A stretch of 64,000 nt of DNA, from NCBI RefSeq assembly GCF_001761485.1, contig NC_090774.1:3224001-3288000 (forward strand), written 5' to 3'. The position numbers and the translations under genes are program-made. This DNA comes from Yarrowia lipolytica. Lineage: Eukaryota > Ascomycota > Dipodascomycetes > Dipodascales. The notes beneath the pieces are model-generated. The model saw only the letters and a program-made list of their open reading frames with translations. It did not search any database and was not told where the DNA came from. How positions within the stretch are numbered: the first letter of the stretch is position 1; each line of letters starts with the position of its first letter. Shown here in pieces: positions 8,601 through 51,518 of the stretch.

Positions 8601-8604
8601 GAAA

Positions 8605-8675
8605 TGCGCCGACCCGGAATCGAACCGGGGGCCCATCGATGGCAACGATGGATTTTACCACTAAACCATCGGCGC
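8605..8675 (-). tRNA. tRNA-Gly (anticodon GCC)
   Basis: A 71-nt cloverleaf on the minus strand. Acceptor GCGCCGA pairs with TCGGCGC, with discriminator A. The D arm has GGTTTAGTGGT (A box). The anticodon stem CATCG/CGATG encloses loop TTGCCAT with anticodon GCC. The T arm is CCCGGTTCGATTCCGGG (B box). There is no intron and no T-run before the following 5S rRNA, so both are probably one pol III transcript processed by RNase Z. Confidence 0.96.
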
Positions 8676-9266
8676 AGTTTTTCTGACTTTTTTTAAAGAT
8701 TGAGTCTGCTCTGTGACAGCATACTCACGTGACCGGCCTCTGTAGCTGAAATGTAGTAGTAGAATACAAAAAACCATGCAATGTTTGAAGATTTTGTGTA
8801 CCTGTGGGATATTGTGGACAAACCTATTTCAGAGGGATAAAACAGCTGTGAGACGTCTCTAATATTATAATTCATTCACCCAGAATCCGTTATCGTGTGA
8901 CTTGGTTTCATGTTTGGTTTCGCACCAATCAAGGTTGATGACAGTATAGAGGGAGGTTGGGAGGAATCCGAACTGTGTAGATAGCGAAAAGGGACGACTA
9001 ACTAAGGAGAGAAGAAATAGACACCAGCAAATGACTGCCAGATTTGTAATTTTTTTGCTCGATAATCCATTTAGCTTGAGGCTTCATATTACTCTTAATC
9101 CACCACGTTTCCCATCTTCTCCCGTCCTCTCCATCGCCCCACAGCCCATCTCGCTAAATAAGTCACATGACTTTAACTTCCCAGGGTAACGTCTACCGTC
9201 CACGTTGCTGCATGTCGACGACAACCACCCATCTCATCCATCAACAGAACGGGCCAATTGCACACA
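8676..9266. other. Intergenic region with the VMA2 promoter
   Basis: About 590 bases between the tRNA-5S unit and VMA2. A T-rich run (8678-8695) immediately precedes the tRNA 5' end. The right half is pyrimidine-rich (TCCACC, TCTCCCGTCC near 9100-9140), as is common upstream of highly expressed Yarrowia genes. No gene is seen. Confidence 0.5.
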
Positions 9267-27023: not shown

Positions 27024-27096
27024 GCCCGAGTAGCGCAATGGTTAACGCGTTGGACTTCTAATCCAAAGATTGTGGGTTCGAGTCCCACCCCGGGTG
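27024..27096 (+). tRNA. tRNA-Arg (anticodon TCT)
   Basis: A 73-nt cloverleaf. Acceptor GCCCGAG pairs with CCCGGGT (one A-C mismatch and a terminal G-T), discriminator G. The D arm contains TAGCGCAATGGTTAACGC (A box). Anticodon stem TTGGA/TCCAA encloses loop CTTCTAA with anticodon TCT. The T arm is GTGGGTTCGAGTCCCAC (B box). There is no intron. A T6 pol III terminator follows at 27110-27115, so no 5S gene is attached. It resembles yeast tRNA-Arg(UCU). Confidence 0.94.
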
Positions 27097-27200
27097 CTTA
27101 TACACTTACTTTTTTGTCTATTGAGGAAAATAAGGTTTTGATCAATATTGTTCGACTCACCCAAAATGTCAACCTGAACACGCACCCACAGACACAAAAA

Positions 27201-47117: not shown

Positions 47118-47405
47118 GGAGCATGCCTCGAGTACAGCACATGGAGTGACGGCGCCTTCGGTCATCCAACGCTCATATAGAAATAACATGTTAGAATAGT
47201 GTTGAATTGTAAATTCTGCCAAAGTCATCATCATGAGCACATAGAAATCTGCAAACTGTACATTCTCATGGGAAAATAATTGTTTATACTACATACGCTC
47301 CGAATAAGTATTCTTCTACAATACAAAGTTTCCAAGCAATTTTGTGTTTTATTTATGTGATTATGGGTTTTTTAAAAGAGTTAGCTTTTGTTTTGAGAAT
47401 TATGT

Positions 47406-48251
47406 TTACTTCTGCATAGCACGGAGTCGGGCAACCTCGGCCTCGAGCTCCTTGTTTCGAGTCAGAAGCTCCTCGACTCGCTCCTCAAGCTGGGACATTC
47501 GCTCCATCTTTCGGGCTCGGGATCGTCGAGCGGCCTCGGTGTTTCGAGCTCGCTTGACGGCCACAGAGTCAGCACCCTCCTCAACAACAATGGGAGAGAG
47601 AGGAGCCTGTCGAGGCTTTCGGTTGTAAGCAGTAAGACCATGCTGGTCCTTCTTGTTCTCAAAAGAGGGAGACTCAGAGCCATCTCGCGGTCGCTTGAGA
47701 GGGTTCACATCCATACCGCCGAGAGATTCAGGTCCAACACTGCTGGAGGCAGGGCTGACCGAAGCAGACACGGTAGTAGGAGCGAACGAGTCAATGTTCT
47801 GAGTGAAGGCCATGGGGAAGGGCATGAGCTCAGCGTCAGGCTCAGCCTTGACAGCGACGGGCGCAACCTGGGGGGCAGGGCTGGCCTGGGGAGCAGCAGC
47901 GTCGTCATTGAACAGCGACTCCCAGTTGTTGCAGTCTCCAAGGTCGGCATCACCGAAGATAGGAGAGGCATCAAAGTCGTCGTTGCCAAAGCTGTGGCCC
48001 ATGAGTTCCTGGGGCGAAATTGTACCAGTTGCCGGGGTGAGAGAGGCAACTAGGGGATCAATCTGTTGGGGCTGCTGAGGGGCAGCAGTCTGAGCATGAG
48101 CGTGGCCAGTCTTGCCAAACTCTCCGACAGCCTCGTGCTTGGGGGTCAGCATGGGAGAGAAGGGCATCTGGTTGCCGCTCATCGAAGCAGCGAAGCCGCC
48201 AAAGGCAGACTCGTGCTTCGAGAATCGCTTGTAATCGTGGTAGATAGACAT
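47406..48251 (-). CDS. GCN4: Gcn4/CpcA-type bZIP transcription activator
   Basis: A 281-residue protein, the length of yeast Gcn4 (also 281). The basic region [20 protein letters not shown] starts at 233. [12 protein letters not shown] is the Gcn4 form of the DNA-contact motif. A short leucine zipper ([20 protein letters not shown], ending RLRAM) reaches the C-terminus. The acidic/aromatic stretch [20 protein letters not shown] followed by NNWESLF (about 88-113) looks like the activation domain. Gcn4 turns on amino-acid synthesis genes when uncharged tRNA activates Gcn2, binding TGA(C/G)TCA. The leader holds four very short uORFs (see the next entry), the classic translational switch of this factor, which strongly supports the identity. 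Confidence 0.93.
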
Positions 48252-48324
48252 TTTGACTGGATTGAATGTTGGATCAAATGTAACGGGGGTAATGTTGGTC
48301 GTTGTTGTAATGTTTGTTGTATGT

Positions 48325-48574
48325 TCAGCTGGGGGTAAGGGACACCATTTTGTTGGGATAAGGCCGCGATAAGAATCGGACGGGAAGTTTACTTGAGTTT
48401 CAGCATTTTTAAAAGGGGGGCGTGAGGCGAGCTTTTAAAAATTGTTTAGAGAGGATTCTGTAACAATTTTTCTTCGACTAATAAGAGGGGGACTTATTAA
48501 TTCTTTCGTTATTCTTTCAATTCATTGTGTGTTGTTTTTGGTTGACGCGGGGGAAAAATTTAGAAAGCGGACAT
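48325..48574 (-). promoter_or_regulatory. GCN4 leader with four short upstream ORFs
   Basis: Reading the minus strand from the TATA to the GCN4 ATG, there are exactly four ATGs and each opens a tiny ORF. uORF1 (48560-48574) encodes MSAF, uORF2 (48517-48525) MN, uORF3 (48389-48406) MLKLK and uORF4 (48325-48348) MVSLTPS. All end before the main ATG at 48251; the last stop lies 73 bases upstream of it. In budding yeast four uORFs of two or three codons give reinitiation control that lets GCN4 be made when eIF2 is phosphorylated. By analogy the early uORFs would be permissive and the later ones inhibitory. Confidence 0.85.
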
Positions 48575-48658
48575 CTTGACTGTATCGTATCTAAATTCTT
48601 GGTGTGTAGTGTTGTAAATTGAAAGGCTTGGAGAAAAGAAGAAGAGGAAAGAGAAGGG

Positions 48659-48678
48659 TGAGTCAGAGTGTATATATA
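48659..48678 (-). promoter_or_regulatory. GCN4 TATA box with an adjacent Gcn4-type site
   Basis: TATATATA at 48671-48678 is about 420 bases upstream of the GCN4 ATG, leaving room for a leader of roughly 350-390 nt. A perfect palindromic TGAGTCA (48659-48665) lies five bases downstream of it on the minus strand. TGA(C/G)TCA is the binding site of Gcn4 itself, so autoregulation is possible. Confidence 0.6.
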
Positions 48679-50660
48679 GTGAGTTGGGAGGAATAAATTT
48701 TTCGTTGGTCCAGCAACCTTAATTCCAGAGGCCTGTGTCTTGCCTTGTTCAGGCTCCCGAAAACGGCAACTTTATCCCATCTGTTGCAGGCTTCCTCTCT
48801 TTCTATTGGCCAACGATAGCGGCGGTGAACTTTGAAATCGGAGCGAGGTCGCTAGGCTTCTGGCGAACTGAGTATGTGTGCTCTGTGAGAGTTGTGGCAG
48901 GGAAATAGCGGTCGGAATCAGGAAATTGGGGTTTGAAAAACCCCCTGAAGATGCCACTTCTTGCCACTTTTTCGTTTGGGGCTCTCATACGTTCGTCCGC
49001 ACCCCACAAGTTCACGTGCGGTGACTAATTTCTGCAGACCATCAAGGCTAAACTTAGAGCGTGAGAAACTCGAGTGACTAATTCGTGGCTAGTGCCAGAA
49101 TTGATATTGGTTGTCGCTTGACTAATTGCTTCTGGTTTCAGGCGATCCACTTCCTCATGGTTTCATCATCCTCGCCAATCATTTATCTCACCAATTAGCC
49201 CTCTTTATTCTCACGCCCCTTGGGAAATCCAAGCCCATCTCCGCCACCTCCGCTAAAGGAACCGCTTCCGCTCGACACCTCGGCATGAATTTAATATGAA
49301 CCTTGGCGTTGGAACTGTACATCGTTGTTTCCACACGCGACAGACATACAGCCGGCTGTAGCAGATCCAAAGGGGCAACCGTTCAGCAGACAAGGACTCC
49401 ATAGTGTATGTATCGGTATTATACTACTCGTACAGTAGTTACACTGTATCCTCTAAAAATCATGGCGATAAATAAGCGCTACAGGAGTGACACTCACGGT
49501 TAGAGACTGTAGCATACATAGATGCACGCGTGGAAGGCTGGATCTGTCCTCTTCTACTGTAAAAGCCGCACTCAGTCCCTCACACACCAGCATCATGCGG
49601 ATAACGATACCCGTCTATCAGCGCATGTTCCGTTTCCATTGGCCGTTGAGTCAGAGAACCGGCTTCTTGGCCTTTCTTGCTCCTTTTCTGTGCCTGTTTC
49701 TGCACCTCCAAGCCACGGGTCCCACCTTATTTCACGAAGCGGTAGGTCCGAGTAGATGCTGTATTTCGCCTGTACCTCACCCATTTAGATGCATGAGTAC
49801 AGCGCTGTAGGAGCTGAGTCGACTCGATCTGTATCAGACGCGAGCAGTCGTCCTTCTACAGGTATCGGGAGGAGCAGTCTTTTCTTCTTCCTGAATCAGT
49901 CATTTAGTCTCTCGACACGTTCCGCCGTCGGGAATGTTGTGAATCATTTAGCCGCTTCAGGTGCCTCCGAATTGATGTTCTGTTCCGCCTCCCGGCATAG
50001 CTAATTACCAATCCCACTGGCCTAGTGCACTTGTACCTACACCAGAAACAAGGCACTAAATATAATGTGCGTGGTCGCGACACTGTCACTACACAAATTA
50101 TTGTACCGCAGCACAATATTAGTCGTCCCAATGGTTATTGAGTCATAGCAAGTGTCAAGCGCATCGTCGAGCTAAGCAGGTAATATACGGCTCGTGCCTG
50201 TCTCTGATACAGAGCTCGTTCGTATGCGTCTTATACAGACATGCCGAGTAGCTGTGAGGAGGTGTTGAAATAAAGTGAACTGCTGAGAGCCAGGCACTAT
50301 CATAAAAAACTCGCGACTACTACTTGCAGTACAAATACTCAAAAGTCTGTGTCCGTTATGATGAATCCAGTCACTATGCTACATCCACTAAACGCCGATC
50401 ATCGAAGGGGTCACGGATGCAGTTTGCAATATACTTGTGCATTCAGACCCAGATACAAGTACAAGTACAGTAGTAATTGTTTTGGTATGAAGGATGTGGT
50501 TATCAGGTACCAGTTTCGTGGCAGGTCTCAATATCTTCTAAAGGTCCTTACGCGAGTAACACTGATGTGAAGGTATGTGAAAAGTATACCCTTACATCGG
50601 CAGTAGGCCTGCCATTAACCAGTCTGTCGTATCTCATATCATTTCCACGATCTATTTACA
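48679..50660. other. Long intergenic region, GCN4 upstream to COQ11 3' end
   Basis: About 2 kb with no supportable gene. Short frames on both strands lack domains or good codon use. GTAC-type words occur near 49428-49450 and 50453-50472. No RNA or mobile element is seen. Confidence 0.5.
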
Positions 50661-51518
50661 TTAGTTTCTACTTTTGGAGTCACTAAATCGTTTGAGAGCA
50701 GCCAGGGCAATGACTCCCTCGATGTCCTCATTCAGAGCATCTACCGCTGCCTCCGCAACAACGTTGACACTGAGAGGAGGCTGGATGAACTGTGGAAGAG
50801 CAGGGAAGAAGGATCGAGCAACGGTCTGGGCGCCGAATCCGACCTTTAAAGCCTCGGCAAGAGCGTCTCGAGGTGTAGACTTGTGAATGCCAAATTGACG
50901 GTCCCCGGAAGACTCGTACATGAATGCGGGTCGCAGGAACACCGATCTGAGGTTGGTGAGGTCGGAGATTTCGGTCTCTGCCATTCGTTTGGAGGTGATA
51001 TATCCATCGGGGATGAGATTGCTGGTCTTCTCGGCAGACACCATGACGTAGGGCTTTCTCTCGTCCATCGGAACAGTGTCGGCAAATGCTGTTGCCGTCA
51101 GAACTGCGCTCAATCTGTTCATTTTGTCGTAGGAAAAGTTTGGGTCCTTGGCCATAGGATTGGAGCCCTTGACGAGACCACACAGGGCGTCTTTAACTCC
51201 TCCGTTAAGTCCCTGCTTGTAGTTGCCGCCCTCCAGCAAGATTCCCATTGAGTGAATCACTGCCGACGCCTTCTCTAGCTCGTTGGTGTATGTAGAGGGC
51301 TCAAAGACGTCAGCTCGCTTCCATTGGACCTTGGACATCCAGCTCTCGGCGTTCTTGGGAGGTCCAGATCGAGAGATGGAAGTGACTGCCCATCCCTTGG
51401 AGAGGGCCTGCTTGCAAATGTGTCGTCCTGTGTTAGCAGCTGTGTGTGAGGTGTGTGTTGAGACTTGCTACTTACCAAGGAATCCGTTTCCGCCAAAGAC
51501 AACGAGGTTTTTCGACAT
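50661..51518 (-). CDS. COQ11: Coq11-type NAD(P)-binding protein with one 48-nt intron
   Basis: Exon 1 is 51476-51518 and exon 2 is 50661-51427, giving 269 residues. The intron (51428-51475) begins GTAAGTAGC and ends GCTAACACAG, and splits a Gly codon inside the nucleotide-binding motif. Spliced, the N-terminus reads MSKNLVVFGGNGFLG then RHICKQALSKGWAVTS, an atypical short-chain dehydrogenase Rossmann start. Then come ISRSG, VQWKRADVFEPSTY, AVIHSMGILLEGGNYKQ, SYDKMNRLSAV, GYITSKRMAETEI and FLRPAFMYE. This order closely follows budding-yeast Coq11 (YLR290C), a mitochondrial inner-membrane protein of the coenzyme Q synthome. No strong presequence is visible, as in the yeast protein. Confidence 0.92.

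What the first reader, a model, noticed from the sequence alone, without database searches (positions are those of the whole stretch)
48325..48574. Four tiny uORFs in the leader of the Gcn4-type gene
Between the TATA and the main ATG there are exactly four ATGs on the coding strand, and each opens a complete ORF of 4, 2, 5 or 7 codons. Budding-yeast GCN4 also has four, while filamentous fungi (cpcA) usually have two longer ones. This suggests the four-uORF reinitiation switch is kept, or was regained, in an early-branching yeast. The uneven spacing (34 nt between uORF1 and 2, 110 between 2 and 3, 40 between 3 and 4) is a concrete pattern to compare.
Basis: partly seen in the sequence, partly recalled or inferred. 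Interest (0 to 1): 0.75.

Follow-up and report, generated by a model that had tools for sequence, protein, structure and literature searches.

The report
Four tiny uORFs before Yarrowia GCN4
The gene for the yeast amino-acid-starvation regulator Gcn4 is preceded by four tiny reading frames that probably act as a translation switch; such frames were already reported for this species in 2007, so the find is mostly a confirmation with a few new details.

Summary
Upstream of a 281-codon Gcn4-type bZIP gene (minus strand, 48251-47406) lie four ATGs below a TATA box, opening closed ORFs of 4, 2, 5 and 7 codons. The genome fits Yarrowia lipolytica (inferred). Four ATGs are what composition gives; but of 1434 shuffled leaders with four ATGs only 9 close all within 7 codons, 3 match the mean start context and 0 do both. 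Gcn2 and the eIF2-alpha phosphorylation-site motif are present, so a GCN4-type delayed-reinitiation switch is the best reading. It is not new: Cvijovic et al. 2007 traced GCN4 uORFs 1, 2 and 4 as far as Y. lipolytica. My context scores agree: uORF3 is weakest, and its ATG ends an 11-bp inverted repeat. Differences from S. cerevisiae: no room or fold for the uORF1 5' enhancer, and the signatures of an inhibitory uORF4 are absent. A cluster of Gcn4-like sites upstream suggests transcriptional autoregulation. Transcript ends, translation and the leaders of relatives could not be tested.

The parts
47406..48251 (-). Main ORF: Gcn4-type bZIP factor, 281 aa (probably YALI0E27742g)
   Evidence: ORF; Pfam bZIP; S. 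cerevisiae GCN4 chain 2dgc E 2.6e-17; start Met-Ser shared with the four closest full-length homologues; Ser219 present
48560..48574 (-). uORF1, MSAF, stop TAA; ATG 323 nt upstream of the main ATG
   Evidence: context at 53rd percentile of 53 Yarrowia ORF starts, 83rd among ATGs of shuffled leaders
48517..48525 (-). uORF2, MN, stop TGA
   Evidence: context at 89th percentile, 99.1 among shuffled-leader ATGs
48389..48406 (-). uORF3, MLKLK, stop TAA; weakest context; its A and T are the last bases of an inverted repeat
   Evidence: context at 25th percentile, 53rd among shuffled-leader ATGs; inverted repeat
48325..48348 (-). uORF4, MVSLTPS, stop TGA; 73 nt from stop to main ATG; likely the inhibitory one (inferred)
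   Evidence: context at 91st percentile, 99.5 among shuffled-leader ATGs
48405..48442 (-). 11-bp perfect inverted repeat ATTTTTAAAAG/CTTTTAAAAAT with 16-nt spacer, ending in the AT of the uORF3 ATG
   Evidence: local fold -7.5 kcal/mol, z about -4; 2 of 300 leader shuffles reach 11 bp
48477..48501 (-). Predicted 9-bp AU-rich hairpin with a C-rich 7-nt loop between uORF2 and uORF3
   Evidence: fold of 48516-48404: -14.5 kcal/mol, z -2.8, 3 of 300 shuffles as stable
48671..48678 (-). TATA box (TATATATA); start site expected downstream, not mapped
   Evidence: sequence
48659..48665 (-). TGACTCA, Gcn4-type site just below the TATA
49022..49125 (-). Three TTAGTCA (TGACTAA) sites, starting at 49028, 49081 and 49125; with TGACTCA at 48665 and TGAGTCA at 49647 and 50139 (+ strand starts) a cluster of 6 of the window's 15 such sites
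   Evidence: cluster P about 1e-4 by random placement, widths and motif set chosen after looking

Best explanation
This is the translational control leader of Y. lipolytica GCN4. Scanning ribosomes enter at a cap between the TATA and uORF1, translate uORF1 and/or the well-placed 2-codon uORF2, and keep scanning as 40S subunits. With plentiful ternary complex they reinitiate at uORF4 (strong start context, 7 codons, only 73 nt before the main ATG) and mostly fall off. When Gcn2 phosphorylates eIF2-alpha, ternary complex returns late, uORF4 is skipped and Gcn4 is made. uORF3 probably plays a small part. Shown by sequence: the four uORFs, their contexts, the inverted repeat, a Gcn2-type kinase and the eIF2-alpha motif. 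Inferred: transcript start, uORF translation, which uORFs are permissive or inhibitory, and starvation induction.
For: Gcn4-type gene. Four closed non-overlapping tiny uORFs, rarer than chance in length and start context (1 of 47 genes). Paired spacing (34/110/40/73) resembles the S. cerevisiae description: 1-2 close, 3-4 closer still, 2-3 and 4-GCN4 wide (PMC5972666 passage). Gcn2-type protein of 1599 aa with RWD, kinase, HisRS-like and HGTP_anticodon2 domains. eIF2-alpha with MILLSELSRRRIRS around the phosphorylation site (that this is the Ser51 site is recalled). Published tracing of uORFs 1, 2 and 4 to this species.
Against: The 5' enhancer that makes S. cerevisiae uORF1 permissive (about 160 nt; hairpin element at -129 to -83; PMC3131280 passages) has no visible counterpart: TATA to uORF1 ATG is about 100 nt, -129 to -83 folds to 0 kcal/mol, the last 76 nt to -0.3, and the last 96 and 146 nt fold no better than shuffles (z 0.12 and 1.16). 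uORF3 and uORF4 do not end in a Pro codon (uORF4 ends CCC AGC TGA), and 7 of 10 nt after the uORF4 stop are A or T, the opposite of the proposed S. cerevisiae uORF4 signature. The spacing match is weak: 3-4 (40 nt) is not closer than 1-2 (34 nt), and the middle of three gaps is the largest one time in three by chance. uORF1's context is only average. 73 nt from uORF4 to the main ATG is short for late ternary-complex loading. No expression data.
Confidence: 0.62

Rival explanations
1. Candida albicans-type control: one inhibitory uORF, here uORF4, carries the regulation by stress-induced bypass, and the other uORFs are minor.
For: C. albicans GCN4 has three uORFs but uORF3 alone suffices (PMC5972666 passage). 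uORF4 has the strongest context of the four. A 5' enhancer of uORF1 is not seen.
Against: uORF1 and uORF2 contexts are average to good (53rd and 89th percentile), so few ribosomes should reach uORF4 without first translating one of them; a strong uORF4 context is unfavourable to leaky scanning (inference).
Confidence: 0.2
2. The uORFs only lower Gcn4 output all the time, by repression or nonsense-mediated decay, and starvation control is mainly transcriptional through Gcn4 sites in the promoter.
For: Cluster of 6 of the window's 15 Gcn4/AP-1-like sites upstream of the gene; TGACTCA sits right below the TATA.
Against: A Gcn2-type kinase and the eIF2-alpha site are present. N. crassa cpc-1 and C. 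albicans GCN4 are described as autoregulated and as translationally controlled (PMC5487733 and PMC5972666 passages).
Confidence: 0.1
3. Some or all of the four ATGs are not in the mRNA because transcription starts downstream, or they are chance ATGs.
For: The start site is not mapped here; four ATGs are expected from composition.
Against: The TATA lies about 100 nt above uORF1; uORF lengths and contexts together occur in 0 of 1434 four-ATG shuffles; a published comparison places homologous uORFs here.
Confidence: 0.08

Closest known systems
S. cerevisiae GCN4 leader (four uORFs, delayed reinitiation)
   Same: Homologous bZIP gene, four tiny non-overlapping uORFs, a 2-codon uORF2 (the S. cerevisiae uORF2 length is recalled), a wider gap between uORFs 2 and 3, Gcn2 and eIF2-alpha site present.
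   Different: uORF1-uORF2 AUGs 49 nt apart against 68 nt (PMC4027193 passage); uORF1 close to the TATA with no visible 5' enhancer; no Pro-codon ending on uORF3/4; A/T-rich after uORF4; inverted repeat at uORF3; uORF3/4 of 5 and 7 codons; Gcn4-type sites upstream.
Candida albicans GCN4 leader (three uORFs, one sufficient)
   Same: Several uORFs; autoregulation reported there, suggested here by sites.
   Different: Four uORFs rather than three; which ones matter here is untested.
Neurospora cpc-1 / Aspergillus cpcA leaders
   Same: Short first uORF (cpc-1); Gcn4-type sites upstream suggesting autoregulation.
   Different: No long uORF2 and no long stop-free extension: the main frame is open for 61 codons upstream (TAA at 48437), with no in-frame CTG, GTG or TTG.

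Membership tests
GCN4-type uORF reinitiation leader | Main ORF is a Gcn4/CPC1 homologue | tested here: met
   the genome's five other bZIP_2 matches were not compared
GCN4-type uORF reinitiation leader | At least two short uORFs, closed and not overlapping the main ORF | tested here: met
   better than composition by length and context
GCN4-type uORF reinitiation leader | Gcn2 kinase and phosphorylatable eIF2-alpha in the genome | tested here: met
   by sequence
GCN4-type uORF reinitiation leader | uORFs lie on the mRNA and are translated | not testable with these tools
   no transcript-end or ribosome data at hand
GCN4-type uORF reinitiation leader | Starvation and Gcn2 dependent induction at the level of translation | not testable with these tools
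   needs a reporter experiment
S. cerevisiae GCN4 mechanism in the strict sense | Structured 5' enhancer within about 160 nt upstream of uORF1 | tested here: not met
   -129 to -83 folds to 0 kcal/mol and spans the TATA; 76 nt upstream folds to -0.3; the transcript start is inferred
S. cerevisiae GCN4 mechanism in the strict sense | uORF3/4 end in a Pro codon, GC-rich after the uORF4 stop | tested here: not met
   uORF3 ends AAG, uORF4 ends AGC; 7 of 10 nt after the uORF4 stop are A or T
Pezizomycotina cpc-1 leader | uORF2 of 35-70 codons and a stop-free extension of the main frame of at least 160 codons | tested here: not met
   against PMC5487733 passages

The most novel reading that the evidence does not exclude
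Y. lipolytica GCN4 is a compact, mixed form of the switch: uORF1 and uORF2 allow reinitiation without the S. cerevisiae-type 5' enhancer, perhaps because this yeast keeps eIF3 subunits lost in S. cerevisiae, while uORF3 is damped by a hairpin at its start codon, so that uORFs 1, 2 and 4 are the ancestral working set. The uORF1 start region may be an old local copy of the main start region.
Probability: 0.25. Interest if true: 0.5.

Novelty: already known. Interest (0 to 1): 0.3.

Why it matters
GCN4 is the textbook reinitiation switch. A leader that keeps the uORFs but lacks the S. cerevisiae enhancer, in a yeast with eIF3 subunits that S. cerevisiae has lost, would let one ask which parts of the mechanism are ancestral. 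Y. lipolytica is an industrial yeast, so the leader could also serve as a starvation-responsive control part.

Tried and rejected
Intron in the leader: no GTGAGT, GTAAGT, GTATGT, TACTAAC or CTAAC in the 419-nt leader, one CTGAC at 48666 above uORF1 (motifs recalled), so the uORFs are not obviously spliced out. Near-cognate N-terminal extension as in cpc-1: 61 open codons upstream with five near-cognate codons (AAG, ATC, ATT, ACG, ATT) and no CTG, GTG or TTG; the ACG at 48302 and the ATTs at 48311 and 48293 have A at -3, so weak use is not excluded. Rfam over 47300-50700: one match, a CRISPR repeat model at E 0.54, below its cut-off. tRNA genes: two in the window (8604-8676, 27024-27097), none near the leader. 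Related leaders: a scan of viral contigs and one of bacterial/archaeal contigs confirmed no relative (8 and 40 pattern matches); the metagenome cap was zero and not tried; relatives of this genome are not held. Conservation of the uORFs, the decisive test, therefore rests on the 2007 paper, whose Figure 1 I could not see.

Two hairpins competing for one strand as a switch: they exist on paper, but the uORF3 ATG bases are 69-94% unpaired in the ensemble of that 76-nt fold, so strong masking is not supported; left as weak.

Full report
Where it is. The window is G000:C5:3224001-3288000 of a 20.5-Mb, 6-contig genome, which fits Yarrowia lipolytica; the tools name no organism, so this is my inference. 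The gene on the minus strand, 48251-47406, encodes 281 aa with a bZIP domain. Its best match among solved structures is S. cerevisiae GCN4 (2dgc, E 2.6e-17). A protein search found 231 homologues, 120 listed, among them one 94% identical from 'Yarrowia sp. B02' named General control protein and several named GCN4. The genome has six bZIP_2 matches, this gene being one; I did not compare the other five. Two papers name YALI0E27742g as the Y. lipolytica GCN4 homologue (passages). One reports a phosphorylation site at S219, and residue 219 here is Ser; that this gene is YALI0E27742g is therefore likely, not proven. Neither paper saw a clear expression signal: no significant expression under nitrogen limitation (PMC3222671) and no Gcn4-specific peptides in the global proteome (PMC4766638). 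Of the 15 proteins aligned, the four closest full-length homologues (77-94% identical) share the start Met-Ser; one (P0004) has an extra in-frame Met six codons upstream.

The number of ATGs is ordinary (mean 2.6-3.8 in shuffles; 27 of 47 Yarrowia upstream regions have at least four in 330 nt, though much of that is probably untranscribed promoter). What is unusual is that all four close within 7 codons (9 of 1434 four-ATG shuffles), and that their mean start context is so good (3 of 1434); both together 0 of 1434. Limits: the 7-codon threshold was set after looking, and the context matrix rests on 52 ORF starts found mechanically, some of which may be misplaced.

Which uORFs matter. Scored against 53 Yarrowia ORF starts (this gene included), uORF1 lies at the 53rd percentile, uORF2 at the 89th, uORF3 at the 25th, uORF4 at the 91st and the main ATG at the 68th; among 3286 arbitrary ATGs the uORFs lie at 96.4, 99.8, 76.8 and 99.9. 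Without this gene in the matrix the scores are 2.28, 5.03, 0.13 and 5.36, main 2.79, and among ATGs of shuffled leaders the percentiles are 83.0, 99.1, 53.0 and 99.5. So uORF2 and uORF4 stand out, uORF1 is average to good, uORF3 is not better than chance. This agrees with Cvijovic et al. 2007 (PMC1964767; abstract, outline, passages and section 5 read; [quoted passage not shown] lipolytica. Gunisova and Valasek 2014 (PMC4027193, passages) cite three or more GCN4 uORFs in all hemiascomycetal yeasts. In substance the finding is already in print. My searches showed no title or abstract of an experimental study of this leader, but I opened passages of only some listed papers, one search listed 10 of 1,007, and most subscription journals are not held.

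Structure. Between uORF2 and uORF3 the RNA is predicted to form AU-rich hairpins with C-rich loops (-14.5 kcal/mol, z -2.8, 3 of 300 shuffles as stable). One is an 11-bp perfect inverted repeat that ends in the AT of the uORF3 ATG (2 of 300 shuffled leaders reach 11 bp). Elsewhere the segments are near the shuffle mean or weaker, except uORF3-uORF4 (z -1.9, 12 of 300); the whole leader has z -1.6 to -1.7 (8 of 100 and 15 of 300 shuffles as stable). In the ensemble the uORF3 ATG is mostly unpaired (69-94%), because a second hairpin competes for one arm. Masking is possible but weak, and there is no covariation evidence.

Differences from S. cerevisiae. There, uORF1 needs a 5' enhancer of about 160 nt with a hairpin at -129 to -83, which I read as counted from uORF1 (PMC3131280 passages). 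Here that stretch spans the TATA and folds to 0 kcal/mol, the 76 nt before uORF1 fold to -0.3, and 96 and 146 nt fold no better than shuffles. uORF3 and uORF4 lack the terminal Pro codon, and the sequence after the uORF4 stop is A/T-rich. The strict S. cerevisiae cis-elements are thus not met, while the general layout is. Y. lipolytica keeps eIF3 subunits that S. cerevisiae lost (PMC7049704 passages); the Pfam families that I recall as eIF3d and eIF3l are in this genome. Linking the two is speculation.

Trans-acting parts. A 1599-aa Gcn2-type protein (RWD, kinase, HisRS-like and HGTP_anticodon2 domains) and eIF2-alpha with MILLSELSRRRIRS are present, so the signalling arm exists by sequence.

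Promoter. TGACTCA sits at 48665, just below the TATA, with three TTAGTCA upstream. Of the window's 15 TGASTCA/TGACTAA sites (16.6 expected), 6 begin within 48659-50139 (P about 1e-4 by random placement) and four within 470 bp (P 0.0019), against a maximum of 2 in any 470 bp of the 20 background stretches. Motif set and widths were chosen after looking. [GA]TGAGTCA is linked to amino-acid biosynthesis genes in this yeast (PMC4766638 passage). Autoregulation is reported for cpc-1, cpcA and C. albicans GCN4 but not S. cerevisiae GCN4 (PMC5487733 passage). TTAGTCA can also be a Yap-type site (recalled).

A curiosity. The 18 nt before the uORF1 ATG match the 18 nt before the main ATG at 13 places, followed by ATGTC in both. 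None of 3286 arbitrary ATGs (+ strands of the 20 background stretches) and none of 1378 gene-gene pairs reach this; 7 of 10000 shuffles do. It may be an old local duplication of the main start, or chance found after the fact.

Verdict. A correct observation and a sensible reading of a published case. The functional claim is likely but, as far as my searches show, untested in this species; the exact count of four is probably less meaningful than uORFs 1, 2 and 4.

Noticed in passing
48572-48592 and 48249-48269: The uORF1 start region is a near copy of the main start region (13 of 18 upstream bases, then ATGTC); 7 of 10000 shuffles do as well.
   Followed up: partly
48659-50145: Cluster of 6 of the window's 15 Gcn4/AP-1-like sites upstream of GCN4, suggesting transcriptional autoregulation.
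   Followed up: partly
48405-48471: Two alternative hairpins share one strand (AACAATTTTTAAAAG) just before uORF3, with nearly equal predicted energy.
   Followed up: partly
48285-48553: Five tracts of 5-6 C on the coding strand of the GCN4 leader, two in or next to hairpin loops; meaning unknown.
   Followed up: no
P0004 (homologous protein): A close homologue from an unnamed source has an extra in-frame Met six codons upstream of the shared start (MTNPIN-MSLY), so its leader may carry one more ATG near the main start.
   Followed up: no
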